NCBI GenBank assembly: GCA_017457155.1 | Contig: JAFTHZ010000003.1 | Span: 1-43,708 of the forward strand | Reading direction: 5' to 3' | DNA from: Ruminococcus sp. | GTDB taxonomy: Bacteria; Bacillota; Clostridia; Oscillospirales; Acutalibacteraceae | DNA: 43,708 bases | Part shown: positions 18,902-42,849 of the stretch, one piece after another | Position numbering within the stretch: position 1 is the first letter of the stretch | Layout: every line of letters starts with the position of its first letter | The notes under the pieces: model-generated | What the model saw: the letters and a program-made list of their open reading frames with translations, nothing else | Database searches by the model: none | Told to the model about the DNA's origin: nothing | Made by a program: the position numbers and the translations under genes

Positions 18902-19480
18902 TCAGTTTTTATTACCTTTTGCCTTCATAGCCTCCACAACACTTCTGACCATCATATGATAACTCTCAGTTGTATCAATCTCAAGGTGATCAAATACCCC
19001 CAGAGAATCCAGGGTAGAGAAGCCGTGAGTTACAACACGCATTGCCACATACATATGTTCCATAAACTCTTTATCCTCTACTCCATACTCCTTAAGTATA
19101 TAGAAAATGGGTGCTTCGAATCCCTTGATAGCCTGCTGAAAACCCGGGTCAGACAACAGGCTCTCGTCTATGAGCAATTCATAAAGATACCTGTGATCCT
19201 TCAGAAACGACCTGAAGGCATCCGCCGACTCTGTTGTTGCATCATCAAGTTCAATTCCTGAAACAGCCTGCACCACATGCTCCGTATACTTTGCAGCAGC
19301 AAGTTTCGCCACCTCCAGCATAAGCTCATGCTCGTTCTTCACGTGGTTGTACAGAGATGACACCTGCACCCCAAGCTTTGCAGCCAATTGCCTCATGGAG
19401 AAATTATCTTTTCCTTTTTCGTCAATCATGGCAAAAGCACTTGATATGATCAGTTCTTTTGTCAAGCTTTTCTTAATCAT
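18902..19480 (-). CDS. TetR-family transcriptional regulator
   Basis: The N-terminal helix-turn-helix is clear (ELIISSAFAMIDEKGKDNFS, then RQLAAKLGVQVSSLYNHVKN), followed by a TetR-type ligand domain with a TetR_C-like C-terminal half. I choose ATG 19478-19480 (192 residues) because AAGGTGAT lies at the right distance; an ATG 18 bases upstream has no ribosome site. It has its own promoter and terminator and no divergent partner, so its target is not evident. Confidence 0.88.
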   Translation of the reverse strand: MIKKSLTKELIISSAFAMIDEKGKDNFSMRQLAAKLGVQVSSLYNHVKNEHELMLEVAKLAAAKYTEHVVQAVSGIELDDATTESADAFRSFLKDHRYLYELLIDESLLSDPGFQQAIKGFEAPIFYILKEYGVEDKEFMEHMYVAMRVVTHGFSTLDSLGVFDHLEIDTTESYHMMVRSVVEAMKAKGNKN

Positions 19481-19534
19481 AGGATCACCTTGAACCATAG
19501 AATCACTAAAGCAGTATACAATACCTTCAGATAA

Positions 19535-21478: not shown

Positions 21479-21483
21479 AGCAA

Positions 21484-23166
21484 TTAAATCTCCTTTTCGA
21501 TATCGTAGCCTGTATCCATACCTGCAATATGTTTCTGAATTGCAGTTGCATCCTTAACATTCACCTTGGTGTCCTGGTTGACATCTGCAAGCTCAACTCC
21601 GCTGTCTGTCAGTGTGCTAAGACTTGCAACATGCTTCTGGATGGCGGTGGCATCCTTGACGTTTACCTTGCCGTCCTCATTGGCATCGCCAAGGACTCCC
21701 TTGGGGTCAGTGGGATTTGAAGGATTGTTGGAATCTGTTTTTTTCTCGTAGATAAAATCGCAAGTAATAATCATTTGCTTATTGTCAGACAAATCATTAT
21801 CAATCATCGCAGGCATATCGTTGATTGTAGCGGTAACATCAACACTGCCGCTGTTGTCTGTTTTGAATTCATATCCATATTCAGTCTCAATCCATATACA
21901 CATACGATAGGTATGTCCATCAATAAAATCAGTACCTGCCGGGACATATTTACCGTCCAATGTCATATCATTCCACGCTGTAGAATTCACCCTTACACCG
22001 GAAGTTACTGTAACAGGAGAATACAAAGGTCGTACCCAGTTTTCGATCTTGTCAAAATCAACACTTACCTCTGTAAGTATCTGGGGTTTTACTATGTCTA
22101 CTATGTATGACTGTGTACGAGTTGCCAACACCTCCAGTGTAGGAGACATCAGGCATATTTTCTGCTCCAGCGTACAGCTTCCTTCTTCGCCATAAATCAG
22201 TGAGTTGAGTTTTACGGATGCGCCTGTTATGTCACGCAGTACTCTGCCATCTTTTATAAGACTTGTTTTTCCGAATATATAGTAACCATTACTACTCATG
22301 CTTGAGGGCAAAGCCTTGGTGGTAAAGCTGAACTCAGTATCCATGTCCGATGTACCAAGACAAAAAGTCCCCGCATAAACATCGTGTTCTCCCAGGGGAG
22401 CATCAGGAAATCTCGACTCAAAGTCCAGAATTCCGTCAGGGACAGTTCCCTTATAAGATACAGTGTAAACACGGTCTACATAATAAGCAATTGTTCCGTC
22501 GCCATTCTTTTCAGAATACACATCGCAAATGATGCCATCCACGCTACAATCAGAATTCTCATTGAAGGTATATCCCTTCGCAGGGTCAAGGTAGAATCTG
22601 CACTTATACTTACCTTCAACGTAAATATCAGTACTCTTCATCTCAGGGGCAGATGAGCCATTTATTGGTCCATACCACACCATTGAATCCAAGTCGTATT
22701 GTTTACTCTGAAGATCATCAGTTCTGTATTTTGGAGGGCATCCGAAAACAGGAGCATCCACACCTACAACGTATGCCCTGCTGATCACCTTAGGTTCAAG
22801 GAAGGTAAAATGGAAAACCTGACTGTATACCTTACCGCCGTCATAGGTAATCTTACAACGAAAATCAAGAGAATCAAGTTCTCCTGATGCCAGAAGCTTG
22901 AAATGATTTGTTTTTGTTCCGATGTAATACTCGTTATCATCAAGATCTACAGGGTCAAATGTACTGTCAAAAAAGCCTGCCTGCCATTGGTAAGTTACAT
23001 TGGTGGCTCCTGTAACCTTCAGCTTGATTTCTCCATAAGAGCCCATATATGGAGTAACTGCCAGACTTTCAACAGATACAACAGGTGCTGCATATGCCGT
23101 CATTACAGACACAGCACACATTATCATCAAAAGACTAAGAACAAGTGAAAAAACACGTTTAGTCAT
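21484..23166 (-). CDS. Secreted dockerin protein B (tandem paralogue of A)
   Basis: 560 residues with the same signal peptide and first 290 residues as protein A, including the WYGPI, CRFYLDPAKGYTFNENSDCS and YYVDRVYTVSYKGTVPDGI segments. Long DNA stretches are identical (for example 22413-22500 against 20726-20813). The middle module is different, and a type I dockerin closes the protein (GDANEDGKVNVKDATAIQK and ADVNQDTKVNVKDATAIQK). AAAGGAG lies 11 bases before the ATG. It is five bases from gene C. No catalytic motif seen. Confidence 0.88.
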   Translation of the reverse strand: MTKRVFSLVLSLLMIMCAVSVMTAYAAPVVSVESLAVTPYMGSYGEIKLKVTGATNVTYQWQAGFFDSTFDPVDLDDNEYYIGTKTNHFKLLASGELDSLDFRCKITYDGGKVYSQVFHFTFLEPKVISRAYVVGVDAPVFGCPPKYRTDDLQSKQYDLDSMVWYGPINGSSAPEMKSTDIYVEGKYKCRFYLDPAKGYTFNENSDCSVDGIICDVYSEKNGDGTIAYYVDRVYTVSYKGTVPDGILDFESRFPDAPLGEHDVYAGTFCLGTSDMDTEFSFTTKALPSSMSSNGYYIFGKTSLIKDGRVLRDITGASVKLNSLIYGEEGSCTLEQKICLMSPTLEVLATRTQSYIVDIVKPQILTEVSVDFDKIENWVRPLYSPVTVTSGVRVNSTAWNDMTLDGKYVPAGTDFIDGHTYRMCIWIETEYGYEFKTDNSGSVDVTATINDMPAMIDNDLSDNKQMIITCDFIYEKKTDSNNPSNPTDPKGVLGDANEDGKVNVKDATAIQKHVASLSTLTDSGVELADVNQDTKVNVKDATAIQKHIAGMDTGYDIEKEI

Positions 23167-23171
23167 GACAG

Positions 23172-24941
23172 TTAAATCTCCTTTCCGATATCGTAGCCTG
23201 TATCCATACCTGCCACGTGCTTCTGGATAGCGGTGGCATCCTTGATGTTCACGTTATCGTTTGCGTCAACATCCGCAAGGATTCGACCTGTATCAGAAAG
23301 ATTTGCAAGACCTGCTATATGCTTCTGTATAGCGGTGGAATCCTTGACGTTCACCTTGGAGTTACAATCAGCATCTCCATAGATTCCTATGGGTTTATTG
23401 GGGTTTTCTGCACAGGGAGCAAACACAAGTCCAAGTTCCAGCTCTGTCTCGTCGTGTGAGCCGTAGGCTATGGCACTGACTCCGTTAATGTAACCTGTGG
23501 CTTCATTGTAGCCGTCTACCATCAGGAAGGTGTGGTTGCCCTCTGCCTGAACTAACACATCCACTCTGTAAGTGCGACCTACCCGGAAGGTATCATCCTC
23601 TGACATCAGAACCCCTCTGCCCTCGGTCACGTCGTACCACCTAACTCTTGACACATTGCAACCCTGAGTTGTGCAGAATGCGTCCAAATCAGGAGTTTCG
23701 CCCTCTAAGGGAGTATTCACATTGATAACATCTACTATGGATACTATGGTTGGTTCGGACATTGTGTATCTGACAGAAAGCTCTGCAGAAATCTCCGATC
23801 CGGGCAGGAGAACATCCGCCTGCTCACCGCCTACGAGAGCCATAATATCCACGTAGCCATCCTCATCTATGCTGAACTTATGGTCCTCATTTGCTCTTAT
23901 CCATACCTGAAGCTCGTATGTGTGTCCTGCCTTAAAGGTATCGGTTTCTTTCATTGAAACTTCTGTAGAGTTTGTAACATCTGTCCAGTAAACACCGTTT
24001 ATATAGAAATCATCACCTGCCGGAGAAACGAAAAAGTCGGGGTTTGCACCGACAGAGGGAGTCTTGAGGTCCGTAATCTCTACATACTCTACCTCTTCTC
24101 TGATATCACCAAATACCACGCAGGAAACTTGGATATAGTATTTATCATTTTTACCTGCAGTGTTTGCTTCCCCTTCCTTACCATTGATTATTACATTGAC
24201 ATCAGTCATATCGTTATTTGTAGAGAAATAATAGTCACCAATGGTAGTCAGAAAAACGTTAACCTCGTAGATACCATCTTCCTCGAAAGTATGAGACGGG
24301 TCAAGGAAGGTCTGGTTTACACAGTCATACCAAGCAACACTCTCGATACAAAAGGGAGAGTCGGTTTCATCTTTAACAACGCCGGCTGTAAGTATCTCTA
24401 CATCATATTTGGGATATCCCCCTGCCACAGGCTCCTCTACATTAACCTCGACATTAGAAATCTCATAATTGTAATCACATGGCTCAAAGGTGTATTCTAT
24501 AAAAGCCTTAGATTTACCTGTGAGGTCGTCGTGGACAACTGCTTCTTCACCGTTGACCGTAGCACTTATGAAGGGTGTGTTATAGTTATCGACACGGAAT
24601 TCGTAACCCTCTGTGGGCACAAGCAAAATATAAAGGGTATAAACGTGGCCCAGCTCAAAAGTATCGGAAGGAGAAACTACCCACTGTTCTGTTTCATCAT
24701 ACCACCACTTGCCGTTATACACATCAGGATCGTCCTTCATCTGATCATCGTATGTGTAAGAGGTACTGCCGAGACGGCTTGCGTAATCGGGATGGTAGCC
24801 TGCATAGGGAGTATGAACACCTGTTATTTCAACATTTTTTATGATACTGACATTAGGAGAATTTGCCGCATAAACCACAGAGGGAATCATGGCAAACATT
24901 AACACCAAACATAAAATAAAACTAACAATTCTTTTTTTCAT
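23172..24941 (-). CDS. Secreted dockerin protein C with repeated modules
   Basis: 589 residues: signal peptide to about 25, then four modules of about 105-115 residues with the pattern I..V.V..P..G..P...W.D....F..G..Y.......G..F, and a dockerin (GDADCNSKVNVKDSTAIQK and ADVDANDNVNIKDATAIQK). The last module, with CTTQGCNVSRVRWYDVTEGRG and AIAYGSHDETELELGL, is shared with gene D. No catalytic domain is seen; the modules look like Ig- or fibronectin-type beta domains but I cannot assign a family. Confidence 0.86.
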   Translation of the reverse strand: MKKRIVSFILCLVLMFAMIPSVVYAANSPNVSIIKNVEITGVHTPYAGYHPDYASRLGSTSYTYDDQMKDDPDVYNGKWWYDETEQWVVSPSDTFELGHVYTLYILLVPTEGYEFRVDNYNTPFISATVNGEEAVVHDDLTGKSKAFIEYTFEPCDYNYEISNVEVNVEEPVAGGYPKYDVEILTAGVVKDETDSPFCIESVAWYDCVNQTFLDPSHTFEEDGIYEVNVFLTTIGDYYFSTNNDMTDVNVIINGKEGEANTAGKNDKYYIQVSCVVFGDIREEVEYVEITDLKTPSVGANPDFFVSPAGDDFYINGVYWTDVTNSTEVSMKETDTFKAGHTYELQVWIRANEDHKFSIDEDGYVDIMALVGGEQADVLLPGSEISAELSVRYTMSEPTIVSIVDVINVNTPLEGETPDLDAFCTTQGCNVSRVRWYDVTEGRGVLMSEDDTFRVGRTYRVDVLVQAEGNHTFLMVDGYNEATGYINGVSAIAYGSHDETELELGLVFAPCAENPNKPIGIYGDADCNSKVNVKDSTAIQKHIAGLANLSDTGRILADVDANDNVNIKDATAIQKHVAGMDTGYDIGKEI

Positions 24942-24965
24942 AACACTCGCCCTTTTGCTTTTTTC

Positions 24966-26951
24966 TTATTTCACAGACTGACCGATGGGATAGCCTGTTG
25001 TCATTCCTGCCACGTGCTTCTGGATAGCGGTGGCATCCTTGATGTTCACGTTGCCGTTTGCGTCAACATCTGCAAGGATTCGACCTGTATCGGAAAGACT
25101 TGCAAGGCTTGCGATGTGCTTTTGGATAGCGGTGGCATCCTTGACATTTACCTTGCCATCCTCATTGGCATCGCCCAGAAGCCCTGTAACATCGGGCTCT
25201 GAAGGGTCTTTCTCGCAGATGGGGAACTCAAGTCCAAGCTCCAGCTCTGTCTCATCGTGTGAGCCGTAGGCTATGGCCTTTGTGCTGTTTATGTAGCCTA
25301 CAGCTTCATTATAGCCGTCAGCCATCAGGAAGGTATATCCTTCATCCGTTTTAACCAGAACAGTAACTTTGTAGCTGCGACCTTCAACAAAAACGTCGTC
25401 AGCATTCATCAGTGTTCCTCTGCTCTCAGTCGCATCGTACCAATTAACCTCAGAGACACTGCATCCGTCGGTTGTGCATACAGCGTCCATATCGGGAGTC
25501 TTGCCTGCTACGGGTGCGTCAATTCCTGCTACATACACCACATCAATAACTTTTTTCTCGGGCTCTTTTTCGATAGGCTCGTAATAAATCCGCACTATAT
25601 CCTCGTATGTTGACAGGTCGGAGTTTGTAACAACACAACGGATAACATAGCATCCCCCTTCCTCGGGGCGTTCATCCGGCTGCCAATGTGAGACATTATA
25701 TGCATCGCCGATATGGGTCCACTGAGTATCCTCTCCACAGTAATCGGACTCGTCACACATATACCAGTTGACGTACTGATGGTCTAAGGTACGGTTACGC
25801 AGTTCAATGATGGGAGACTCTTCCTCGTCAGCATCTACGTAGATGGTATCTATCCTGTCGAGTATATAGTCGAATTCTTCCTTATGAAGATCGTACACAG
25901 AGCTTCCGTAGCTTTTTACAATTTCCTTATCACACAGACCGATCAGTCTGTAATAATAGTCCAGAGACTCAGACACAATCATGGGAGGTGCGGTTACCTT
26001 ATAGTATCCGCCTGTGTAATCATCTATGGTCTCTGTAAACAGCTTTTTTGAGGAACCGCTGAGGAATCTCTGGTCTGTATAGTTGAGACACTTTGAGAGT
26101 ACGATACCCTCTGCAACTATAACTCGTCCCCAACCGTTATTGCAATATGCAAAGCTGGCGCTGTCTCCATCCTTGCCTCCGTTTGTAACATAGAAGTTAC
26201 CGCCCAGCACATAGACACTGGGGTAAAGGCAACCGTATTTGATAAAACTATCAAAAGGAGTTACGTCAATGCTTTGATATTTGCCGTAGAAGTCGCCGCC
26301 TAAAATAACCACCTGAGGCACATCATACATATAAGCATTATGACCAACAGAGATAGTATCGCCAACCCATGAAGAGCTGGAGTCAAAGGTACCGCCACGG
26401 ATATATGTATTACCGCTTGTAGTTCGGATTACGCTGCAATCTCCCTGCTCAAAGGGAGAGAGTATCTCGTAGTATCCGCCAAAAATCTCCAGGTCTCCAC
26501 CTTCATTGTAGAATACCGCCTTGCTGTATGAGCTGTAACCCTCAGAGAAAGAGCAGTAGCCTGTTTGAGAAGATGAGGTATCTCTGATACTCATCACACC
26601 GCCGCTGCGAATACGGAACAGCGCAGAGTCGTTGCCCTGGGTACTTCTCTGGATGCTGTATCCGTTAAGGTCAAGGTTGAAAGTTGCTCCCGTGGGAATA
26701 ACAACCTCCAGGTCGTTTGTGTTGTCATCCTGAGTGATGTCGTCATTCAGGATGTATATATAACCCGACTGTGCATTGCTTGCGTGGTTACGAAGCTGTT
26801 CGTAGGTCTCGATATAATACACAGGTGCCTCACCTACTGCTTCAGTCTCTGCCTGAGCCGCAGACGTAACTGCTCCGCTTATGGGCACCATTGTCAGAAG
26901 CAATACAAATACCAGTAATGAACTACATGCTCGTTTTAAATTTTCTTTCAT
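24966..26951 (-). CDS. Secreted dockerin protein D with a beta-helix-like N-terminal region
   Basis: 661 residues. After a signal peptide (cut near 32) comes a region (about 45-310) rich in short repeated strands such as LNDDITQDDNTNDLEV, FNLDLNGYSIQ, GGDLEIFGGYYE and NTYIRGGTFD, the pattern of right-handed parallel beta-helix (pectate-lyase-like) or adhesin folds. Then a linker domain, a module shared with gene C (TTDGCSVSEVNWYD and AIAYGSHDETELELGL), and a type I dockerin. Catalytic residues of pectate lyases are not evident. AGGAGG lies six bases before the ATG. Confidence 0.86.
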   Translation of the reverse strand: MKENLKRACSSLLVFVLLLTMVPISGAVTSAAQAETEAVGEAPVYYIETYEQLRNHASNAQSGYIYILNDDITQDDNTNDLEVVIPTGATFNLDLNGYSIQRSTQGNDSALFRIRSGGVMSIRDTSSSQTGYCSFSEGYSSYSKAVFYNEGGDLEIFGGYYEILSPFEQGDCSVIRTTSGNTYIRGGTFDSSSSWVGDTISVGHNAYMYDVPQVVILGGDFYGKYQSIDVTPFDSFIKYGCLYPSVYVLGGNFYVTNGGKDGDSASFAYCNNGWGRVIVAEGIVLSKCLNYTDQRFLSGSSKKLFTETIDDYTGGYYKVTAPPMIVSESLDYYYRLIGLCDKEIVKSYGSSVYDLHKEEFDYILDRIDTIYVDADEEESPIIELRNRTLDHQYVNWYMCDESDYCGEDTQWTHIGDAYNVSHWQPDERPEEGGCYVIRCVVTNSDLSTYEDIVRIYYEPIEKEPEKKVIDVVYVAGIDAPVAGKTPDMDAVCTTDGCSVSEVNWYDATESRGTLMNADDVFVEGRSYKVTVLVKTDEGYTFLMADGYNEAVGYINSTKAIAYGSHDETELELGLEFPICEKDPSEPDVTGLLGDANEDGKVNVKDATAIQKHIASLASLSDTGRILADVDANGNVNIKDATAIQKHVAGMTTGYPIGQSVK

Positions 26952-27762: not shown

Positions 27763-30700
27763 TCAGTCGTTAACTCTGTCAACTGTGTACATATCAGAGT
27801 AAACTGTCAGGATCTCTCCATCTGCTGTCTGATACTTTGCCCATGCCTTAACAAAGTGGATCTGATCATCGAAGAAGGGACCTGTCCATGTGTATGTACC
27901 GATAGCGTTAACCTTGTCAACCTCTCTGTCGTACATACCGCTCTGGCCTGAACCTGTGTAGAACTTGCTCTCGTCATAGATTGTGTTCTGTACGGAGATA
28001 AGTCCTGCAGAGATGAACTTGACACCCATCTCCTCAGTAGGTACATACCAGCTGATGGAAACCTGACCGTAGGGATCTGCTATGTTGAAGGTATCAACAT
28101 TAGCAAGAACAGAGTACTCTATCTCTTCGTCCTCTGCTACGAATACAGCCTTGAGGATTGTGTCTGCTGCAGGATAGAAGCTAAACTCTGTTGCGTAGCT
28201 CTTGATGGATACTACGTTGCCCTTTGCGTCAACTGCTGCCCAGTAAGCGAACTTCTGGCCAGGCTCTGCTGCGTCTGCAACTACAGTTGTCTTGGAGTTT
28301 GCAAGATACTTGCCGTCCTTCATACCGCCGTTTACTGTGATCTTACCACCCTCAACGGTGATAGCTACGTATACGATCTGCTTTGCCCATACAGGTGTAA
28401 CTGTTACGTCCTCACCTGCTGCGATCTTCTCGGCGATCTCCTGTGCTGTCATGTTCCACTCTACGAAGTCGAAACCTGCGTGCATAGGACCATCAGGCAG
28501 AGCGATTGTATCTGTTGCGCTGTAGTACTGCTGATCCCAGATAGTGTTACCCTTGTCGTACAGGAATGTGACAAGCTGTGCGTCATCTATGGGAGTCTTA
28601 AACATAGCCTTGATTGTATCAGAACCTGATGCATAGAAGCTGTATGTAAGCTCTGTGGACAGGATCTTTCCGTCTGCTACATTGACCCAACCAACGAACT
28701 CATTGTCAGCGAGGCTCTGTGCCACAACTGTTACGTATGCATTGATTGGCATCTGTCTGTTGTAGTAGGAGGTACCCTGAGGTCTCTGTGGCCCATCATC
28801 AACGGAGATCGTGAAGCCTGAACCGCCTACGATTTCTATCTTCACAGTTCCTGCGGTTACGGGCTTGACTTCTGTAGCCTTCTTTGTATATATGGCTGTT
28901 ACTGTCAGGTCGCCTGTAATCTCCTCAAACGAGAAATCCCACTCCTTGAAGGTATAACCCTCAACCTCGGGTGCCTCGGGAGCTGTTGCAGCTGAGCCGT
29001 ATGCTACCTGCTGCTCGTCGATCACTGCGCCGTCCATAGCCTTGAAGGTTACGGTGTACTCGTTGACTGTTACGTCGTATCTTGCAACAGTAATTACATT
29101 TGATTTTATTTCAGTAAGATCTGCATCCCAACCCACAAATGTGTAGGTAAACTGTGCATCTGCCTCCATTGTGGGAGTAGGTGCGTTTACTGCGGGCTTG
29201 CCTTCCTCTACCTGCTCAACGCCAAGATACTTTCTGTCTGCATTCAGATAGACTACTGCGTAGCGTTTTGCTGCAGGCTCTGTTGCAGGAGGATCTGTCA
29301 CTACAGGTGTTGTGGTGGCAGGCTCTGTTGCAGGAGGATCTGTCACTACGGGTGCTGTGGTGGCAGGCTCTGTTGCAGGAGGATCTGTCACTACGGGTGC
29401 TGTGGTGGCAGGATCTGTTACGGGAGGATCTGTCACTACAGGAGGAGCTGTAGTAGCTTTAGCTGTTGTTGTAACGGCCTGAGTAGTTGTTGTAGTTTCT
29501 TCCTCGGTCTTCATGGTGTATGTATCAACTGTCCACTTACCGGAGGAATCCTCCTTCAGATAGTAGCCGGTGTTCTCAACAAAGGGACCGGGGATATCAA
29601 CTGTCTGAGGCTGGTTTGAGCCACCATTGAAGATAACATAGTCTACATCAGAAGGAACTGATATGGAATAAATATCCTGACCATATTCATTGGTAGAATG
29701 GTAGGTCATCTTTGTTCCGGGCCAGCTGGAGGTTACATCTCCGCCATCAACCCAGGAGTAACAATATACGCTGCCCCAGAAGTTATTGTTTGTGAAGTAA
29801 ATTGTAGTATACTCGGGATCTGTGGGAGTTGCCGTTGTGGATGTCACAGACTCTGTGGGAGTCTCCACAGCTGTGTATGCACCTGTGACATTGTGGTAGG
29901 TACCGCCCCACTCAAAGAGGAGCAGGATCTGGTCTTCTGCGTAAGTTACCTGCTCAGAAGCCCACTTGCCGTTGGACCCCTTGTCCCAGGTCTTCATGGT
30001 GGTAGCCTCTACGGGTATTTCTGTTTTGTATACCTTGAAGTTCTGTTTTGCGTTGCTCCAATAAGAAGAACCCAATGCGTACTGTGCAGTCTCGTCAGTA
30101 GCCACAAGGTCTGTGTCACCTGCCAGTCCTGAGCTATTCCAGTAATGAAGTGTGGGAACAAAGTCCTTGATATACTCAATAACACCGACATATACGGTCT
30201 TGTGAGTAGGTGCTGTAGTAGCAGGCTCTGTTGCAGGAGGATCTGTCACTACAGGTGCTGTAGTAGCAGGCTCTGTTGCAGGGGGATCTGTCACTACAGG
30301 TACTGTAGTAACAGGCTCTGTTGCGGGAGGCTCTGTGGGTTCCTGCTCCACATAGGTAGCGGATACATTGTGATACAGGTTGCTCCACTCAAACACCAGC
30401 AGAATCTGTCCGTCCACATAGGCTACGGATTCCTCGGCCCATCTGTCGTTCGAGGACTGTCTGAATGTCTTCATCTCTGTAGCAGTCGCAGGAATCTCTG
30501 TCTTGTAGATATTGAAGGTCTGCTTGTCTCCGCTCCAGTAAGCTGAGCCTACTGAATACTCATCTGTCTTGCCTGTTGCCAGAAGTGTGGCATCTCCTGC
30601 AAGACCTGTGGAGTTGTTCCAGTAATGAAGAGTAGGAATAAAGTCAGTTATATGCTCAACAACACCAACATATACAGTCTTTGTTGCAGGAGCAATCTCA

Positions 30701-33102
30701 GCGTCTGACAGGTCGAAGGAAACTGTAAGCTTCTTGGTTGATGTATCAAACTTGAATACGTATTTTCCGCCTGTGGCGTTGATTGTGCAGTCGCCTGCAG
30801 TTGTCTCCATGGTCCAGCGGTCTGCTGAATCAGTGAATGTGCCTGCGTTTCCGTACCATGTACCGTTTGCATCAATCTTAAATGTATAGGTGCCCGCTGC
30901 CAGTTCCTTGGTGACAGCATAGACTCCGTCCACATCAGTCTTGAGAAAGGCATCTGTTGCTTCCCAATCGTTGAAGGAACCCTTCAGATAGATTGTGGAG
31001 GTAGTCAAGGACAGGGTGTTGGCATTATTGTATGTGATGGTATATGTACCATCGCTGTTCATAACAAAAGTGAAGGTGCGGTAGGTACCATCATCATTGG
31101 CTGTGCCTATGATAGCCTTTGAACCGGAGGGCACTGTGTTGTCAATGGTCACTGTGCCGTCATCGTTAAGTGTCACAAATCCTGCAGTTGTGGATTCGCC
31201 CATAACAATTGTAGCGCCTTCATCAAAGCTGGGAGTAAAGGAGGTTACACTTGATGACATCAGGATGGTTGAGCCATCATTTGCAACTCCGCCTGCTGTG
31301 TTGCTGTTTGATGTGTTGTTGGCGTGGATTGTGAGTGTAACTCCATCAAATGCCTCTGATGTCAGGTTAACGATGTTCTTATCCATCACGCTGGCATTGG
31401 AGGAGAATCTGATTGTTACAGTTCTCAGCTTTCCATTATATACTCTTAAGGAGCTGTTTGCTCCACAAGCCTCAAGATACTCAATAAAGTCTGCATCTGT
31501 CACAGGATCCAAAACAATAGAATCTGCTGCAGTTGCACCCTTTGCCCAGTAATGGAGAGTGTTTGTTGAAGCGTCAAAATATACTCTGTTCTCTCTTGTC
31601 AGATATGTTGAGCCTGTAGAAGGATCCAGAATACGATATGTGCTGTTTGTGAGCACAGAGGGAATGTTCTGGACGGGTGTCACAACATTATCATCATCTG
31701 TAAGGTTGAAAGTATCAACTGCCTGATAGTTCATGCTTGTGAGGAGTGTATCCCATGCATCAGGAAGCTCAACCTTAACTGTTACACTCTTTCCGCCGGG
31801 CATAACCTGGGTCTTGTTACGGGAGCTGTCGCCTGTAACTATAAAATCGGTGTTGCCCTTGTACATGGTTGCGCCTGTCTCTACGGTGGGATTAGTGATA
31901 CCGCTCATCCATGCAGGAGAAGAGGTAACAGCCGCTCCCTCAGACTCGGTCGCAACCAGCTGATCATAGACTTCTTTCAGGCTTTTGCCGCTTGTGAGGG
32001 CTCCGCCTGTGTTTGCATAGTAATATGCGTATGCTCGCATCCACATGGGACGGCGGGCAGTCTCAATAAGAGCATCCTCCAGGAGATCCTTGGTCTTGTA
32101 GCGGGTTCCAAGAACCTTTGCTACAGGCTCAGTGATGAATACTGTGCGGTGGGTGTTCTTGTAGTCCTCGGAGCTTGCGCTTCCAAGTCCGCCCAGGTTC
32201 TTCTCGGTGATATCCCATGCGAGAACCTTCATAACCTCCTCAGGAAGGTCTGTGGCAGGAGTCAGGTTATTACCCCACATTGAGAAAGTTGTTGCTGTGA
32301 AGGTGCTGTCGTTAAGATCATAACCTGCAACAACATTGTGAGGCTCCCAGCCTGCGTCCAGACATGCCTGGTCGTTCTCTGAGAATACCAGAGGCTGAAC
32401 ATTACCGAAGGCACTGTCTCGCTGCTGCGAAACACCTGCAAGGTTTATCAGTGCAAACTCAATAAATCTACCTAAAGCGATGTTCACTTCCTCAGTAGTC
32501 ATACCCTGAGTATTGTCAACCCCAACCTGACGGGCAACAGGGCCGTTTGCAAAAGCCATGGGAGTCAGGTTGCTGTCAATGATTGAGCTCATATAGCCCT
32601 CATCATCCATTGCTTTGACATAAGCAATACAGAGAGGAAGATGCTCAGCAGAGCATCCTGCCATAATTGCATTGACTGCTACCTGATAGGTGTTGATTGT
32701 TCTGCCTGTGGCTTCGATTGTAGCGATAACCTCATCCTCTGCATAGGGAGTATATCGCAGGAACTTCTCAACTTTAAGAGTTGTGGGAGGAATAATAGGC
32801 ATACCGTCTGTCTGGCCAAGACCCTCGTAATAGTCCTGCACCTCGTGGTATGCACCTGTCAGCACAATATCCTTATATGTTGTGCTCTGGCCTGTTGTGC
32901 TTACGGGAGAAACAACCTTGAATCTGTTGTTCTGAGGCTCAAGGCAGTCACAATCGTCCTCTGCACAATTCAGGTCTTCGTATGTACCGTCAAAGTCGTC
33001 TGCATACGCAGCGCTTGCTGTAAATGACATAGACATAATGCTCATCAGAGTCATCAGACACAGCAATATTGCGATAGCACGACTAAATAATTTAGATTTC
33101 AT
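27763..33102 (-). CDS. Giant secreted protein: DGLPVVPPT-type domain fused to starch-binding-like and InlB-type modules
   Basis: 1779 residues. Order: signal peptide (cut near 32); domain shared with the next gene (about 65-470), with TDGMPIIPPT, RTINTYQVAVNAIMAGCSAE, NGPVARQVGV and TARRPMWMRAYAYYYANTGG; a beta domain; a CBM48/X25-like module (TIYLKGSFNDWEA, near 700); two copies of a 110-residue module (TVYVGV..PTLHYWN..GLAGD, near 807 and 969); a CBM26-like starch-binding module (IYFTNNNFWGSVYCYSW, near 1097); Thr/Pro-rich linkers of 15-residue repeats; InlB-type repeats (YTFKEWDF, FVEWNM and similar, about 1280-1660); and a C-terminal beta domain. No dockerin or LPXTG anchor. An extracellular protein that probably binds alpha-glucan; the enzymatic role of the N-terminal domain is unknown. 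Confidence 0.85.
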   Translation of the reverse strand: MKSKLFSRAIAILLCLMTLMSIMSMSFTASAAYADDFDGTYEDLNCAEDDCDCLEPQNNRFKVVSPVSTTGQSTTYKDIVLTGAYHEVQDYYEGLGQTDGMPIIPPTTLKVEKFLRYTPYAEDEVIATIEATGRTINTYQVAVNAIMAGCSAEHLPLCIAYVKAMDDEGYMSSIIDSNLTPMAFANGPVARQVGVDNTQGMTTEEVNIALGRFIEFALINLAGVSQQRDSAFGNVQPLVFSENDQACLDAGWEPHNVVAGYDLNDSTFTATTFSMWGNNLTPATDLPEEVMKVLAWDITEKNLGGLGSASSEDYKNTHRTVFITEPVAKVLGTRYKTKDLLEDALIETARRPMWMRAYAYYYANTGGALTSGKSLKEVYDQLVATESEGAAVTSSPAWMSGITNPTVETGATMYKGNTDFIVTGDSSRNKTQVMPGGKSVTVKVELPDAWDTLLTSMNYQAVDTFNLTDDDNVVTPVQNIPSVLTNSTYRILDPSTGSTYLTRENRVYFDASTNTLHYWAKGATAADSIVLDPVTDADFIEYLEACGANSSLRVYNGKLRTVTIRFSSNASVMDKNIVNLTSEAFDGVTLTIHANNTSNSNTAGGVANDGSTILMSSSVTSFTPSFDEGATIVMGESTTAGFVTLNDDGTVTIDNTVPSGSKAIIGTANDDGTYRTFTFVMNSDGTYTITYNNANTLSLTTSTIYLKGSFNDWEATDAFLKTDVDGVYAVTKELAAGTYTFKIDANGTWYGNAGTFTDSADRWTMETTAGDCTINATGGKYVFKFDTSTKKLTVSFDLSDAEIAPATKTVYVGVVEHITDFIPTLHYWNNSTGLAGDATLLATGKTDEYSVGSAYWSGDKQTFNIYKTEIPATATEMKTFRQSSNDRWAEESVAYVDGQILLVFEWSNLYHNVSATYVEQEPTEPPATEPVTTVPVVTDPPATEPATTAPVVTDPPATEPATTAPTHKTVYVGVIEYIKDFVPTLHYWNSSGLAGDTDLVATDETAQYALGSSYWSNAKQNFKVYKTEIPVEATTMKTWDKGSNGKWASEQVTYAEDQILLLFEWGGTYHNVTGAYTAVETPTESVTSTTATPTDPEYTTIYFTNNNFWGSVYCYSWVDGGDVTSSWPGTKMTYHSTNEYGQDIYSISVPSDVDYVIFNGGSNQPQTVDIPGPFVENTGYYLKEDSSGKWTVDTYTMKTEEETTTTTQAVTTTAKATTAPPVVTDPPVTDPATTAPVVTDPPATEPATTAPVVTDPPATEPATTTPVVTDPPATEPAAKRYAVVYLNADRKYLGVEQVEEGKPAVNAPTPTMEADAQFTYTFVGWDADLTEIKSNVITVARYDVTVNEYTVTFKAMDGAVIDEQQVAYGSAATAPEAPEVEGYTFKEWDFSFEEITGDLTVTAIYTKKATEVKPVTAGTVKIEIVGGSGFTISVDDGPQRPQGTSYYNRQMPINAYVTVVAQSLADNEFVGWVNVADGKILSTELTYSFYASGSDTIKAMFKTPIDDAQLVTFLYDKGNTIWDQQYYSATDTIALPDGPMHAGFDFVEWNMTAQEIAEKIAAGEDVTVTPVWAKQIVYVAITVEGGKITVNGGMKDGKYLANSKTTVVADAAEPGQKFAYWAAVDAKGNVVSIKSYATEFSFYPAADTILKAVFVAEDEEIEYSVLANVDTFNIADPYGQVSISWYVPTEEMGVKFISAGLISVQNTIYDESKFYTGSGQSGMYDREVDKVNAIGTYTWTGPFFDDQIHFVKAWAKYQTADGEILTVYSDMYTVDRVND
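29273..29452. repeat. 45-bp tandem repeats coding a Pro/Thr-rich linker (array 1)
   Basis: Units start at 29273, 29318, 29363 and 29408, exactly 45 bases apart, and code for ATTAPVVTDPPATEP-type units in the giant protein. Confidence 0.9.
30221..30345. repeat. 45-bp tandem repeats coding a Pro/Thr-rich linker (array 2)
   Basis: Units start at 30221, 30266 and 30311 with the same 45-base period and nearly the same unit as the array at 29273-29452. Confidence 0.9.
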
Positions 33103-33130
33103 GTTACCATCCTTTCTGTAATAACGACAG

Positions 33131-33148
33131 GGCTGAAAAACTTTTCAG
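33131..33148. other. Hairpin between the UGSC-like gene and the giant gene
   Basis: GCTGAAAA and TTTTCAGC face each other with a two-base gap in the 82-base spacer. It could be an RNA processing or stability element; no T-run marks it as a terminator. Confidence 0.4.
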
Positions 33149-33184
33149 CATAAAGATTATCGTTTTCCAAATACTGCTGTACTG

Positions 33185-35146
33185 TTACTGTGATAGCTTG
33201 CAACTGTTAAGTGTGGGGTAGCCCAGCTCTCTCATGAGAGAGGACCACTCAGAGGGAAGCTCGATCTCATAGGATGCGCAGTCGCCGCCTGGCATAACCT
33301 GTGCCTCCTTGCTGATGTCGCCGCCTGTGATAACAATGCCTGTTGCACCCTTGTCCATGGTCTGGGTTGTATCGATCTTGTCAAAGGGAACAATCGCACT
33401 GAGCCAGGGAGGAGCTGTTGTTGAGCCTACGATATCGGCTTCAACGTTCTCTGTTGACTCACCACCCTTGAGTGCATAATAGTGATCATCAAAGGATGTG
33501 TTCAGGTGAATCTTGCTTCCTGTGTTTGCCCAGTAGTGAGCGTAGGTACGCATCCACAGGGGTCTGCGAGCAGTGTTTATGAGCGCATCCTCGAAGGTGT
33601 CCTTTGAGGAGTAACCCTCTGCCATAGTCTGGGCAGCGTCTGCTGTGAGCCAGAGCATACGGGGAACACGAGGATTGGTGTTACCAAGGCCATTCTGCTG
33701 TTTCTCAGTGATATCCCAAGCAACAAGCTGCATAGCCTTGTCAGGCTCTTCTGTACCAATAGTCACGCTGTTGCCCCATGTGATGGTGGATCCGCAGGTG
33801 ACAACATTATCGTTAAGGCTGAAGCCCTTTGTTACGTGATAGGGATCCCAGCCGATATCCAGACAGGTCTGCTCATCCTCAGCAAAGGCAAAGGGTAACA
33901 TATAGCCGAAGGTACCCATGCGGTTTTCCTTGATTTTGTAACCTGCAAGGTTAAGCATTGCAAGGGAGATGTATCTGCCGAGAAGCTTGTTAGCCTCTTC
34001 GTTAATCATACCATCCTCATAGGAAATTCCCAGCTGACGAGCAATAGGACCGCTGATAAGAGAATAGGGGGTCCATGCGTGGGTACTCTGGAGAGGTTTG
34101 TAGAAGTTACCGTTACCAAAGCACTTTGTAATTGCAATACAAAGAGGCATATACTCAGCAGGACAACCTGCCATAATAGCATTGACTGCCACCTGATATG
34201 CAGTGATGGTGCGGTTTGCAGGAGGAACATCCTGCAGCTCTCCGCTGTAGCTTGTGCAAACATAGTCGGTTGCCTCATAAGGAGTGAAGGTCAGATAGTA
34301 GTCAACCTTGTCCTTTGTGGGAGGAACAACAGGAAGTCCGTCGGACATCTCGTTAACTTCGAAGAACTCCTGTACTCTCTGGTAGGAACCTGTGAAGATA
34401 ACATGGTCATAGGCAACATTTGTGGATGCTGCCAGGCTATCGATCTCCTCCTGAGTAATCTGTGTTGTGAGAGCTGTCACAACCTGATCATAGAGGATGT
34501 CACGAGCCTTCTGCTCCTGAACTGCTGTTTCGTCAGCAGCAAATGCTCCGGGGTATGCAGCAGTTCTCACAACAGGAACACCACGGCTGACGCCTGTAGA
34601 CTGAATCTGTGCAATAAAGGTCTCTGCACCAACAACAACTGCGGGAATACCGATATACTCCGCAGCAAGTGCGTTACCTGTTTCCTTGACGGTACAGATA
34701 CCGCAGCCGCAGTTACCGGAGATAACTGCATCTACGCCGTAATCCTTAAGCTTCTGCTGGAAGTCCTTGGACTGCTGGCTCTGGTTGTTAGGGTTGAATG
34801 TACCGCCCTTGCCAATCTCGTCCATGTAGTAGGTTTTGCAACCAAATTCTTCCTCAAGCATATCCCTGAGGATTGCATGTGTTACAGAGGCCGAGAAACT
34901 TCCACCAACAAGTGCGATTGTCTTGCCCTCAAGAGAATCAAGACGTGCCGGCTGCTCAATGGACTCAATTGTGGAACCCGAAGGCACAGGAGACACTATC
35001 TCATACTTATTCTCTGTGGGCTCAAGGCTTGTCTGTGCTGCTGTTTCTTCTGCCGCAAAAGCTGTCATTCCTATGGTAGTCATAGATATGACACTAAGCA
35101 AACACAGAATCAGCGATAACAAACGCTTTGAGATGTTTGATTTCAT
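33185..35146 (-). CDS. Secreted UGSC-like thiol domain joined to a DGLPVVPPT-type domain
   Basis: 653 residues. A signal peptide (cut near 32) is followed by a domain at about 69-255: GKTIALVGGSFSASVT, then GNCGCGICTVKETGNALA (Cys near 147-152), then YIGIPAVVVGAETF. This matches the UGSC family, a thiol/selenol group whose signature is Sec/Cys-Gly-Ser-Cys followed by Thr; here it is CGIC with Cys codons, not TGA. Residues about 260-650 are the second domain (MSDGLPVVPPT near 272, AYQVAVNAIMAGCPAE, GPIARQLGI, TARRPLWMRTYAHYW), shared with the giant protein. A redox or cofactor role is inferred; its extracytoplasmic location is unusual. Second gene of a three-gene operon. Confidence 0.8.
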   Translation of the reverse strand: MKSNISKRLLSLILCLLSVISMTTIGMTAFAAEETAAQTSLEPTENKYEIVSPVPSGSTIESIEQPARLDSLEGKTIALVGGSFSASVTHAILRDMLEEEFGCKTYYMDEIGKGGTFNPNNQSQQSKDFQQKLKDYGVDAVISGNCGCGICTVKETGNALAAEYIGIPAVVVGAETFIAQIQSTGVSRGVPVVRTAAYPGAFAADETAVQEQKARDILYDQVVTALTTQITQEEIDSLAASTNVAYDHVIFTGSYQRVQEFFEVNEMSDGLPVVPPTKDKVDYYLTFTPYEATDYVCTSYSGELQDVPPANRTITAYQVAVNAIMAGCPAEYMPLCIAITKCFGNGNFYKPLQSTHAWTPYSLISGPIARQLGISYEDGMINEEANKLLGRYISLAMLNLAGYKIKENRMGTFGYMLPFAFAEDEQTCLDIGWDPYHVTKGFSLNDNVVTCGSTITWGNSVTIGTEEPDKAMQLVAWDITEKQQNGLGNTNPRVPRMLWLTADAAQTMAEGYSSKDTFEDALINTARRPLWMRTYAHYWANTGSKIHLNTSFDDHYYALKGGESTENVEADIVGSTTAPPWLSAIVPFDKIDTTQTMDKGATGIVITGGDISKEAQVMPGGDCASYEIELPSEWSSLMRELGYPTLNSCKLSQ

Positions 35147-35178
35147 GAAACCATCCTTTCAAAATATTTTTTAATATA

Positions 35179-35214
35179 AAAACTGAATAATTACTTCGCC
35201 CTTTATTCAGTTTT
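35179..35214 (-). terminator. Internal hairpin between the membrane-anchored gene and the UGSC-like gene
   Basis: AAAACTGAATAA pairs with TTATTCAGTTTT, a perfect 12-bp stem. On the minus strand it is followed by TATATTAAAAAAT, so it may be a leaky terminator or an RNA-stability element that sets the ratio of the two parts of the operon. Confidence 0.5.
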
Positions 35215-35241
35215 ATATACAGGCTTTGTGCAAGGTCCGAT

Positions 35242-36138
35242 TTACTCCTCTGTGAAGTAGGAATTGTTGTCAGGCTCTGTGGCTTCGGGCAGGTTCTCGG
35301 GAGTATAGAAGGTAACATCTCCGAAGAACTCGTCCGCAAAGATAGAGTCCGTGGTAGTATCATCAAGGAACTTAATGTTGCCCTTGCCGTCAAACTCATA
35401 GCCCACTGTGTATTCAGTCTCCTTGTCTGTCACAGGGCTGAAAGTAAGCTTTCCGTCAGCGGCTGTGTAGGCATAGTACATATACCTGTCAAGCATCAGG
35501 TCCTCGCTCTCGTAGTGAATGACCATTATTCCGTCATCAGTAAACTCCACATTCTGAAGGTAGGAAATTGAATAGTAATAATAAGCCAAAGTACGCTCAT
35601 TGGTTGCCCATTCTCCCACAAGGGACTTGTCTATGTTATAGCTCTCATAAGATTCCTTTGTATAATCAGGAACCTTTGCCTGCTCCAGAACATAAATCTC
35701 GTCCTCATGAACCTCTCCTGTCTCCTCATCGGTGTATCCGGGATACACCAGAGTCACCTTGGCATTACCCAAAAGCTTTGAACCTGTTATCTTATAATCC
35801 AGATCCACAGAGCCCAGGTTTATCATCTCCCCTGACTCTGTTTCAACGAATTTATACTCATAATACTCAATACCCCCCGCGTAGCAGGTCTTCCATGTGC
35901 CCTGTCCGTAGCGTCCGGGCTTTTCAAATACATAGTAGACCCTGTCTGCCTCCGCTACCTCATCGGCTGTAGACTGCTCTACCTCAGGGTTCACAGTCAG
36001 CTCCCATGAACCTGTAATTGATTTTGGAAAAACAAAGGAGCAGGCGATCACAACACCTGCAACAACAAGCACACATCCCAGTATTGAAAGTACCAGAAAA
36101 AGTCTATTTGACTTAAGCTTTGCAATTAAAGACTTCAT
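35242..36138 (-). CDS. Membrane-anchored extracytoplasmic protein of unknown function
   Basis: 298 residues with a short basic cytoplasmic head, one membrane segment at about 14-36 (LFLVLSILGCVLVVAGVVIA) and an outside part. The outside part contains two similar lipocalin-like halves: ITGSWELTVNPE with YYVFEKPGRYGQGTW, and LVGEWATNERTL with VEFTDDGIMVIHYESE. This GxW..F..DG pattern is common in small ligand-binding or sensor-like proteins of Firmicutes. It is the first gene of the operon with the UGSC-like protein and the giant protein, so it may anchor or bind a ligand or partner of these. No family name can be given with certainty. Confidence 0.7.
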   Translation of the reverse strand: MKSLIAKLKSNRLFLVLSILGCVLVVAGVVIACSFVFPKSITGSWELTVNPEVEQSTADEVAEADRVYYVFEKPGRYGQGTWKTCYAGGIEYYEYKFVETESGEMINLGSVDLDYKITGSKLLGNAKVTLVYPGYTDEETGEVHEDEIYVLEQAKVPDYTKESYESYNIDKSLVGEWATNERTLAYYYYSISYLQNVEFTDDGIMVIHYESEDLMLDRYMYYAYTAADGKLTFSPVTDKETEYTVGYEFDGKGNIKFLDDTTTDSIFADEFFGDVTFYTPENLPEATEPDNNSYFTEE

Positions 36139-36173: not shown

Positions 36174-36203
36174 AGTATAAAACGAACACTGTTCGTGTGT
36201 CAA
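36174..36203 (-). promoter_or_regulatory. Promoter with palindromic operator for the UGSC-like operon
   Basis: Minus strand TTGACA (36203-36198), an 18-base spacer, and TATACT (36179-36174). The spacer contains the perfect 15-base palindrome ACGAACACTGTTCGT (36182-36196), the layout of a TetR- or MarR-type operator that blocks polymerase. No regulator gene is adjacent. Confidence 0.75.
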
Positions 36204-42175: not shown

Positions 42176-42460
42176 TCAGTCAACAAATTCGTAGTCAAAC
42201 GGAGAACTGCAGTGAGCCCAATATTGTTTATTTTCTTCTAACAACTCGTGCATTATTTCAACGGATCCTTTCAGCTCATCAGCAACTGTCTTGCTTCCTT
42301 TTATAGTAATAAAGTTAAACTCTATATTACGATTAATATCGTCCCAAAAAGCGTCCCAGTTTCTTTCGTATCCGTCTTGCAATTTTAAGCCGTCTTTTAT
42401 TCTTTCGTGCAGCTCCATTAAATATTTGCAATCTGTTAAATCAATAGTTGCTTTTCTCAT
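42176..42460 (-). CDS. Barstar-family (ribonuclease inhibitor-like) immunity protein
   Basis: 94 residues. It shows the barstar pattern: a first beta strand (MRKATIDLTDC), a helix LMELHERIKDGLKL, the signature DGYERNWDAFWDDI, and a C-terminal helix (SVEIMHELLEENKQYW). Barstars block barnase-like RNase toxins. AAGGAGG lies eight bases before this ATG, so I start here. The same frame stays open upstream to a GTG at 42629-42631 that also has an AGGAGG, giving a 151-residue alternative. No intact barnase is in the window. Confidence 0.82.
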   Translation of the reverse strand: MRKATIDLTDCKYLMELHERIKDGLKLQDGYERNWDAFWDDINRNIEFNFITIKGSKTVADELKGSVEIMHELLEENKQYWAHCSSPFDYEFVD

Positions 42461-42631
42461 GTATTTTACCTCCTTATCAGCACAAATAAAACAAGTCTTA
42501 ATATCTAATACAGCATTCCATATTTTATAAGAAACACTTGGCTGTGTTACTGGAACGAACACATCATCTCTTGCTTTATCCGTATAATCATCAGTAAATT
42601 CCTCGTTTGTATATGTCTTTCTGATATACAC
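42461..42631 (-). CDS. In-frame extension upstream of barstar (possible toxin remnant)
   Basis: From GTG 42629-42631, seven bases after AGGAGG, 57 codons run into the barstar gene with no stop. They include NEEFTDDYTDKARDDVFVPV and WNAVLDIKTCFICADKEVKY. The DIKTCFICADK stretch resembles the C-x2-C end of MuF-type phage head/toxin proteins (DxRTCxxC). It may be the tail of a toxin that lost its stop codon and is now fused to the inhibitor, or a chance open frame. Confidence 0.4.
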
Positions 42632-42849
42632 TTTGTCACCTCCTAATATATCGTAAGGACAAGTACCCTCCATATATAGGAGATAAATAAAGAAAAATTG
42701 CACAGTGTTATGCAACTTTTCAAAAATATTTATAATCAGTTTACAAGGGAATGATCGCAATTCACGTATTCTAAATCAAGTGTAGCCGAATAACATATCT
42801 TTCTGGTATATTTATAACTCGTAAACTCAAAAAATGCAACCTCAAATAG

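What the first reader, a model, noticed from the sequence alone, without database searches (positions are those of the whole stretch)
27763..36138. Extracytoplasmic UGSC/DGLPVVPPT system fused to starch-binding modules
One operon encodes a membrane-anchored lipocalin-like protein, a secreted protein with a CGIC-type UGSC-like domain plus a DGLPVVPPT domain, and a 1779-residue secreted protein that carries the same DGLPVVPPT domain with CBM26-like and CBM48/X25-like modules and InlB-type repeats. As I recall, UGSC and DGLPVVPPT proteins elsewhere are small, lack signal peptides and often occur together. Here the pair is exported and linked to glucan-binding modules, and the large protein lacks the thiol domain. 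That suggests an unknown redox or hydrolytic chemistry at the cell surface on starch or a starch-bound compound.
Basis: partly seen in the sequence, partly recalled or inferred. Interest (0 to 1): 0.8.

Follow-up and report, generated by a model that had tools for sequence, protein, structure and literature searches.

The report
Putative exported UGSC reductase, starch-tethered
A starch-eating gut Ruminococcus exports a two-protein system that resembles selenium- and sulfur-based reductases of unknown purpose, and appears to hold one of the two proteins on starch; related bacteria seem to fix the same pair to other fibre-degrading complexes, so it probably carries out a thiol-driven reduction outside the cell on a substrate still unknown.

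Summary
Three minus-strand genes (A 35242-36138, B 33185-35146, C 27763-33102) encode a membrane-anchored protein, a secreted UGSC (CGIC) + "DGLPVVPPT" (DGL) protein, and a 1779-aa secreted protein with a second DGL domain, CBM26, an X25-type module and List_Bact repeats. Pfam confirms UGSC (51 bits, cut-off 25); it has no DGL model. Export is not peculiar to this window: exported UGSC-DGL fusions occur in several phyla, and some Bacillota have selenoprotein forms with an in-frame UGA at the UGSC site. In 11 of 33 non-Ruminococcus loci of this type, TlpA-, CcdA/DsbD- or membrane-ferredoxin-like genes lie within 1 kb. Best reading: an extracytoplasmic, thiol-fed reductase distantly related to glycine/proline reductase component B. 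B- and C-DGL domains diverged by one duplication. C's tail looks like an address tag: of 38 complete C proteins (window included) 28 have a dockerin and 7 CBM26, so chemistry on starch itself is not supported. Against: this genome (89% complete) shows no CcdA, TlpA or membrane ferredoxin, and the substrate is unknown. A TetR gene at 18902-19498 and a unique operator probably control A-B-C.

The parts
36174..36203 (-). promoter-like site TTGACA-18-TATACT upstream of A
   Evidence: 11 of 12 consensus matches (17 promoter-like sites found in the region against 13.2 expected by shuffling, so suggestive only)
36182..36196 (.). palindrome ACGAACAGTGTTCGT between -35 and -10, probable TetR operator
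   Evidence: only site in the 1.64-Mb genome with up to 1 mismatch, 0 in the reversed control; near-identical site at the same place in L009, 1 of the other 25 upstream regions read
35242..36138 (-). gene A: 298 aa, N-terminal membrane anchor, function unknown
   Evidence: homologues aligned
33185..35146 (-). gene B: 653 aa, signal-peptide-like N-terminus, UGSC domain fused to DGL domain
   Evidence: AlphaFold model mean pLDDT 87, pTM 0.83
34466..35002 (-). UGSC domain of B
   Evidence: PF24696, E 2.1e-13; genome-level match at these coordinates
34694..34705 (-). CGIC motif (C148-G-I-C151), the place of Sec in UGSC selenoproteins
   Evidence: C148 and C151 invariant in 46 of 46 aligned homologues
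33188..34432 (-). DGL (DGLPVVPPT) domain of B
   Evidence: alignment A1; same family as DGL proteins without a visible signal peptide, hhalign E 7.8e-44
27763..33102 (-). gene C: 1779 aa secreted protein, DGL domain plus carbohydrate-binding and repeat modules
31687..32898 (-). DGL domain of C, without UGSC
   Evidence: most strongly conserved family residues are kept
30844..30981 (-). X25/CBM48-like module of C
   Evidence: PF22058, 27.2 bits, cut-off 27
29596..29802 (-). CBM26 starch-binding module of C
   Evidence: PF16738; R. bromii Amy16/Amy10 match
28939..29058 (-). List_Bact_rpt (Flg_new) repeat of C, best of two
   Evidence: PF09479
27687..27724 (-). G+C-rich inverted repeat followed by T's after C, probable terminator
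   Evidence: read directly in the sequence; one central mismatch, not listed by the scan
18902..19498 (-). TetR-family regulator (TetR_C_33), probable regulator of the operon
   Evidence: 60% identical to the TetR beside the relative operon L009; Pfam TetR_N and TetR_C_33

Best explanation
A, B and C are an inducible extracytoplasmic reductase system. B is the catalytic protein: its UGSC domain carries a CxxC (C148/C151) where relatives carry selenocysteine, and its DGL domain is probably the partner or substrate-binding part. C supplies a second DGL domain and holds the assembly on starch or the amylosome, as homologous C proteins probably do on cellulosome-like complexes through dockerins. 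Thiol electrons (thioredoxin to CcdA/DsbD to TlpA in some relatives; route unknown in this organism) re-reduce the CxxC, which reductively cleaves or reduces a small diet- or plant-derived compound, by analogy with component B of glycine, sarcosine and proline reductases. Shown: UGSC and DGL homology, the exported family, the Sec forms, redox neighbours in other lineages, the B/C duplication, tail swapping. Inferred: that it is a reductase, that B and C act together, the role of the tails, TetR control. Unknown: the substrate and, here, the electron route.
For: UGSC by Pfam; 46 of 46 homologues match NCBIfam UGSC at E<=1e-3 and 8 of 46 match glycine reductase selenoprotein B. Of 18 DGL ORFs examined in other Bacillota, 11 start right after an in-frame TGA with a long open frame before it; for the two tested, the halves match UGSC profile positions 1-92/94-169 and 2-89/94-171, i.e. 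UGA at position 93. Five Sec forms (L133, L134, L140, two in L141) have lipoprotein-like N-termini by eye; SelB and SelD genes lie beside one cluster. Redox partners: 11 of 33 non-Ruminococcus loci of the exported type have TlpA, CcdA/DsbD or Fer4_5 genes on the same strand within 1 kb; 10 of the 11 were also seen with Pfam or NCBIfam, among them a DsbD 41 bp downstream, E 4.9e-59; MauE in 4 of 7 Sec loci (3 of these 4 scanned loci and a fourth by Pfam). Other relatives: trxB-trxA-DGL-UGSC in Arthrobacter; a UGSC-DGL gene beside grd and trx genes; DGL-UGSC-DGL in two haloarchaeal plasmids. B-DGL (35 rows) and C-DGL (36 rows) are sister clades, each with SH-aLRT 100; mirror r 0.95 over 34 loci. 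Regulators nearby: histidine kinase within 2 kb in 31 of 94 loci; TetR in 8, the window's 8.2 kb away.
Against: Own genome (89% complete): 0 matches to DsbD_TM, AhpC-TSA and Fer4_5, one thioredoxin over the cut-off, without an obvious signal; only 2 of the 7 UGSC-positive genomes of the genus have DsbD_TM. 22 of the 33 loci have no such neighbour, and several of the 11 are close kin (L071/L074 nearly identical); L063's TlpA is below the Pfam cut-off and L074 rests on a profile made here. B is far below the NCBIfam cut-offs for UGSC (28.7 against 125) and component B (29.2 against 65.45). The DGL profile shows no similarity to the one GrdE-type sequence tested and B's profile none to the part of one GrdB before its Sec; DGL has no known activity. 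Mirror r mostly reflects the shared species tree. Foldseek matches of the model are weak and mixed. SECIS-like hairpins were not supported by a consensus fold, z -0.2 to -2.0 singly. The window's C has Asn where 88% of rows have His in the DGL motif.
Confidence: 0.55

Rival explanations
1. A thiol-disulfide reductase or isomerase for extracellular proteins: the starch- or fibre-bound complex opens disulfide-linked plant proteins (such as the protein matrix round cereal starch, recalled) or repairs the bacterium's own surface proteins.
For: CxxC at a helix start, TlpA/CcdA/DsbD partners in relatives, tails of polysaccharide-degrading machinery.
Against: None of the 50 Foldseek rows shown is a thioredoxin; sequence similarity is to component B of amino-acid reductases; the large conserved DGL domain would be unexplained; members without a visible signal peptide.
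Confidence: 0.15
2. Oxidant defence: B is a surface peroxidase or scavenger that protects an anaerobe on oxygen-bearing feed particles.
For: Thiol/selenol site and thioredoxin-type electron supply in relatives; regulators nearby.
Against: No peroxidase family match in B; the annotated relatives sit beside glycine reductase, CoA-transferase and transporter genes rather than oxidative-stress genes, apart from a universal stress protein in one.
Confidence: 0.1
3. A substrate-binding or adhesive surface system without catalysis; the cysteines are structural.
For: CBM26, X25, List_Bact repeats and dockerins on C proteins; no transmembrane thiol carrier found in this genome.
Against: C148 and C151 invariant in 46 of 46; the same site is Sec in relatives, which would be odd for a structural disulfide.
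Confidence: 0.12
4. An enzyme acting on starch itself (hydrolysis or redox change of glucan).
For: CBM26 and X25 modules on C; GH3 beta-N-hexosaminidases among the weak Foldseek matches of B, aligned part unknown.
Against: Homologous C proteins carry dockerins without CBM26 (22 of 38); in Akkermansia, Lentisphaerota and Bacteroidota loci only B was found in the fetched stretches; no glycoside hydrolase match to B or C in Pfam.
Confidence: 0.05

Closest known systems
UGSC family (seleno)proteins, Pfam PF24696 / NCBIfam NF041046
   Same: UGSC domain over the Pfam cut-off, U/CxxC motif, DGL partner in the loci examined
   Different: exported, fused to DGL, Cys not Sec, far below the NCBIfam equivalog cut-off; a starch-binding partner protein. 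Listed as uncharacterised in the passages of PMC13188914 seen
UGSC/Unknown_1 fusion of the Global Ocean Sampling selenoproteome (PMC2398784)
   Same: a UGSC protein fused to an unknown domain (passages seen)
   Different: whether Unknown_1 is DGL could not be checked (supplement not available); that paper proposes a Trx-like fold, whereas the model here reads as another alpha/beta fold
Component B (GrdB/GrdF/GrdH, PrdB) of glycine, sarcosine, betaine and D-proline reductases
   Same: weak sequence similarity over about 140 aa round the Sec/Cys site, common gene neighbourhood in one genome
   Different: exported, no GrdE-like partner recognised, below the curated cut-offs
GrdB-like fluoroacetate reductase of rumen Synergistota (PMC10838667, abstract and outline seen)
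   Same: precedent for component-B-type proteins acting on a non-amino-acid plant compound
   Different: related to GrdB itself, not UGSC-DGL; cytoplasmic location is recalled
Ruminococcus bromii amylosome / cellulosome components
   Same: CBM26 here, dockerins in relatives; cohesins in the genome
   Different: the attached domain is a redox-linked DGL domain, not a glycoside hydrolase or plain starch binder; no dockerin was recognised in the window's C

Membership tests
UGSC family (PF24696) | score over Pfam gathering cut-off | tested here: met
   51.2 bits against 25
UGSC family (PF24696) | U/C-x-x-C redox motif | tested here: met
   CGIC, C148/C151 invariant in 46 of 46
NCBIfam UGSC_fam NF041046 (equivalog) | score over curated cut-off | tested here: not met
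   28.7 bits against 125
Glycine/sarcosine/betaine/proline reductase component B (TIGR01918) | score over curated cut-off | tested here: not met
   29.2 bits against 65.45
Glycine/sarcosine/betaine/proline reductase component B (TIGR01918) | GrdE/PrdA-like proprotein partner | tested here: inconclusive
   DGL profile against a single GrdE-type sequence: probability 0.2%; no GrdE alignment was made
Glycine/sarcosine/betaine/proline reductase component B (TIGR01918) | thiol-dependent reductive cleavage activity | not testable with these tools
   needs enzyme assay
Amylosome component | starch-binding module of the R. bromii type | tested here: met
   CBM26
Amylosome component | dockerin in C | tested here: not met
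   no dockerin found in the window's C; 28 of the other 37 complete C proteins have one
Lipocalin-like (gene A) | profile match or fold | tested here: inconclusive
   best Pfam E 0.074; structure job not finished

The most novel reading that the evidence does not exclude
Exported UGSC-DGL proteins are a large, unrecognised class of thiol/selenol-based extracytoplasmic reductases: gut and other anaerobes use them as inducible terminal reductases that put electrons on dietary or plant compounds outside the cell, a counterpart to flavin-based extracytosolic reductases; gut Ruminococcus has duplicated the DGL subunit to fix the enzyme on the fibre or starch it is eating.
Probability: 0.3. Interest if true: 0.85.

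Novelty: new variant of a known kind. Interest (0 to 1): 0.62.

Why it matters
UGSC is among the major selenoprotein families of an ocean-sampling data set (passages), and a 2026 review counts it among families whose biological functions remain largely uncharacterised (passages). Exported forms with TlpA, CcdA, DsbD and MauE neighbours, a partner family without a Pfam model (DGL), Sec and Cys versions, and a fibre-tethered version with its own operator turn that orphan into a testable enzyme system, with candidate electron donors to try and a place (outside the cell) where candidate substrates can simply be added.

Tried and rejected
Rejected: that UGSC export is unique to this window; that the chemistry must be on starch (tail swapping); that B is a full member of the component B family (cut-offs not met). 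Doubted: a thioredoxin fold for UGSC (no thioredoxin among the 50 Foldseek rows shown of 1522). Led nowhere: PDB sequence searches with B, the 46-row profile and the DGL profile A5; GrdE and GrdB comparisons by hhalign with single sequences, the GrdB one ending at its Sec codon; SECIS consensus fold; regulon search with the operator (only the one site); literature search for DGLPVVPPT (0 papers) and 'UGSC family' (0).

Rows dropped before counts: L001-L007, L028, L035, L038, L041 and L066 as duplicates of L008-L013 (not dropped, whose 68 include five of them); short or contig-end rows; C proteins cut by a contig end, tails under 150 aa, and L036, L057, L070, L082, L090, L092. The 33 non-Ruminococcus loci are the 31 B-only loci without L012 and L050 (29), plus L057, L082, L090 and L092; L082, L090 and L092 show no complete B frame. 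L051 was left out because it holds both types. The 94 loci are these 81, the six plasmid loci L093-L098 and the seven Sec loci.
Full report
1. What is there. The window is one contig (43,708 bases) of a 1.64-Mb, 40-contig genome of 89% completeness. Many of the nearest relatives' records are labelled Ruminococcus or Oscillospiraceae, and the genome carries 37 CBM26 matches (35 over the cut-off) and 5 cohesin matches, as a starch specialist of the R. bromii type would. A promoter-like site with 11 of 12 consensus matches lies before A, and the scan called no terminator-like site between the genes (numbers near chance). By eye, A+T-rich inverted repeats lie in both gaps and a G+C-rich one followed by T's lies after C.

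2. Domains. B matches Pfam UGSC (51.2 bits, cut-off 25) at residues 49-227, followed by the DGL domain, for which the Pfam scan gave no match over a cut-off. C has a DGL domain 40% identical to B's, an X25-type module (27.2 bits, cut-off 27), CBM26 and List_Bact repeats; the CBM26 stretch matches R. bromii Amy16 and Amy10 of known structure. B and C begin with signal-peptide-like sequences and A with a hydrophobic anchor. A's 'lipocalin' nature is unproven: best Pfam E 0.074.

3. The wider family. A profile of the DGL domain found 79 loci in genome contigs, the best of 96 relatives. After removing duplicates and adding same-genus loci and the window, 81 loci were compared: 41 have B and C, 31 B only, 9 no complete B (contig ends or frame problems). 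B-type proteins occur in records labelled Bacillota, Bacteroidota, Verrucomicrobiota, Lentisphaerota, Kiritimatiellota, Melainabacteria, Planctomycetota and Treponema (most are metagenome bins and some may be misassigned). 65 of 68 B proteins have a hydrophobic N-terminal stretch (five duplicates included). So export of a UGSC-DGL fusion is general in this clade. In the genus, 7 of 36 genomes including the window's, and 0 of 23 others of the order, have UGSC. DGL proteins of haloarchaeal and Arthrobacter plasmids, which show no signal peptide by eye, are homologous: hhalign probability 100%, E 7.8e-44 over 335 columns. In two haloarchaeal plasmids one UGSC gene lies between two DGL genes, a one-to-two ratio that the window repeats in fused form.

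4. Selenocysteine forms. Among 398 Bacillota genomes, 20 including the window's have DGL. Of 18 DGL ORFs read in fetched stretches, 11 begin directly after an in-frame TGA with a long open frame before it: nine read U-G-S-C and two another U-x-x-C. In the two tested, the pieces on either side match UGSC profile positions 1-92 and 94-169 (L132) and 2-89 and 94-171 (L140), so the UGA is at the active-site position. Five have lipoprotein-like N-termini by eye. L129 holds four such genes with SelB and SelD beside them. SECIS hairpins are suggestive only: no consensus structure, single hairpins with z -0.2 to -2.0. The window's C148 is the Cys counterpart; C148 and C151 are invariant in 46 of 46.

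5. Electron supply in relatives. TlpA-, CcdA/DsbD- or Fer4_5-type genes lie on the same strand within 1 kb in 11 of 33 non-Ruminococcus loci of the exported type (L060-L064, L068, L071, L072, L074, L077, L092). Ten were also seen with Pfam or NCBIfam (L063's TlpA below the Pfam cut-off); L074 rests on a profile made here and is nearly identical to L071. L092, whose own DGL gene is cut by the contig end, has a DsbD 41 bp downstream (E 4.9e-59). MauE-type genes lie beside 4 of 7 Sec loci, and one of these also has CcdA 2.8 kb away. In Arthrobacter trxB and trxA precede DGL and UGSC. In L132 a UGSC-DGL selenoprotein without a visible signal lies beside genes for glycine/sarcosine-type reductase components A, B and C plus trxA and trxB. 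B itself has weak similarity to component B: E 2e-7 over about 140 aa, far below cut-off. I take this as a common theme of thiol-fed reduction, not as proof of glycine-reductase function.

6. The case against, for this organism. No DsbD_TM, AhpC-TSA or Fer4_5 match was found in its genome, and only one thioredoxin over the cut-off, without an obvious export signal. Two of the seven UGSC-positive genomes of the genus have DsbD_TM. Either the carrier is of another kind, or lies in the missing 11%, or the enzyme uses thiols of the gut, or the Ruminococcus branch has changed function. 22 of the 33 loci elsewhere also show no such neighbour within 1 kb.

7. B and C. In a 120-row tree (quick method, SH-aLRT) the Ruminococcus-type B-DGL domains (35 rows) and C-DGL domains (36 rows) are each one clade with support 100 and are sisters (95): one duplication, then joint descent (mirror r 0.95 over 34 loci, largely a species-tree effect). 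One further DGL-only protein (L057) lies outside both. C keeps the residues that are invariant in all 128 rows, among them G270, G327, G366, E423, W433 and A505 in B numbering, but the window's C has Asn at the place of H437, where 88% of rows have His. It is thus not a plainly decayed copy. C tails differ: of 38 complete ones, the window included, 22 have a dockerin only, 6 a dockerin and CBM26, 1 CBM26 only (the window), 9 neither (profiles from a few seeds). The tail probably follows the host's polysaccharide machinery, so it is best read as an address tag.

8. Structure. The model of B (46-row alignment; mean pLDDT 87, pTM 0.83) has an alternating alpha/beta UGSC domain with the CxxC between strand 140-146 and helix 149-164. 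Foldseek against the PDB gives 1522 weak matches, one at E <= 0.001; the 50 shown are a mixed set (glycerol dehydrogenase, NQO1, GH3 hexosaminidases, MccF peptidases, receiver domains and others), none a thioredoxin, all with query TM-scores of 0.16 or less. I read the UGSC part as Rossmann-like. Nothing in the list speaks for a known DGL fold, but it does not show which part of the model aligned.

9. Regulation. The palindrome ACGAACAGTGTTCGT lies between the -35 and -10 hexamers before A and is the only such site in the genome with up to one mismatch. L009 has nearly the same site and a TetR gene 245 bp from its operon; the other relatives' upstream stretches read did not show it. The window's 60% identical TetR homologue is at 18902-19498, 8.2 kb beyond C. 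Other lineages have a histidine kinase within 2 kb (31 of 94 loci). Ligand-dependent induction fits a system for an external substrate; this is inference.

10. Literature. UGSC proteins are known as selenoproteins of uncharacterised function (passages of PMC2398784, PMC13188914 and PMC9312934), and a UGSC/Unknown_1 fusion was reported in 2008. Searches for 'DGLPVVPPT' and 'UGSC family' found no paper in the held library; the search for UGSC with selenoprotein gave 8 papers, of which I saw passages of those three. A component-B-like route for fluoroacetate in rumen bacteria is a precedent for reduction of plant compounds (abstract of PMC10838667). The analogy to flavin-based extracytosolic reductases rests on the starts of abstracts in a listing and recall.

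11. Verdict. Observation confirmed. Best account: an exported, thiol-fed reductase of the UGSC kind with a duplicated DGL subunit that tethers it to food particles; substrate unknown.

Noticed in passing
   Followed up: yes
window 19742-26951: Three proteins with type I dockerins (19742-21478, 21484-23166, 24966-26951) and one with a weak CBM_4_9 match (23172-24941) lie between C and the TetR gene.
   Followed up: partly
window 42176-42760: Protein with a barstar domain; its partner was not looked for.
   Followed up: no
L129 5949-19267: Four Sec-type UGSC-DGL genes within 14 kb together with SelB and SelD genes in a single-contig Bacillota genome: paralogues suggest different substrates.
   Followed up: partly
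L096 5692-9836: Arthrobacter plasmid operon with ComA-like phosphosulfolactate synthase, trxB, trxA, DGL and a UGSC protein with a NifU-like C-terminal domain; an ABC transporter lies upstream.
   Followed up: no
L135, L136, L137, L138: About 600-aa DGL proteins; in L136 the UGSC part is below the Pfam cut-off, the others were not scanned. In L135, L136 and L137 a FAD-dependent-oxidoreductase-like gene is near (Pfam tested only for L136; by eye).
   Followed up: no
L051, L027: Ruminococcus-type B+C genes in bins labelled Kiritimatiellae and Alistipes: transfer or bin contamination.
   Followed up: no
N-termini of exported B proteins outside Ruminococcus: A Cys pair within 40 aa before the UGSC domain in 24 of 32, against 4 of 38 Ruminococcus-type B proteins; possible extra redox relay.
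   Followed up: partly
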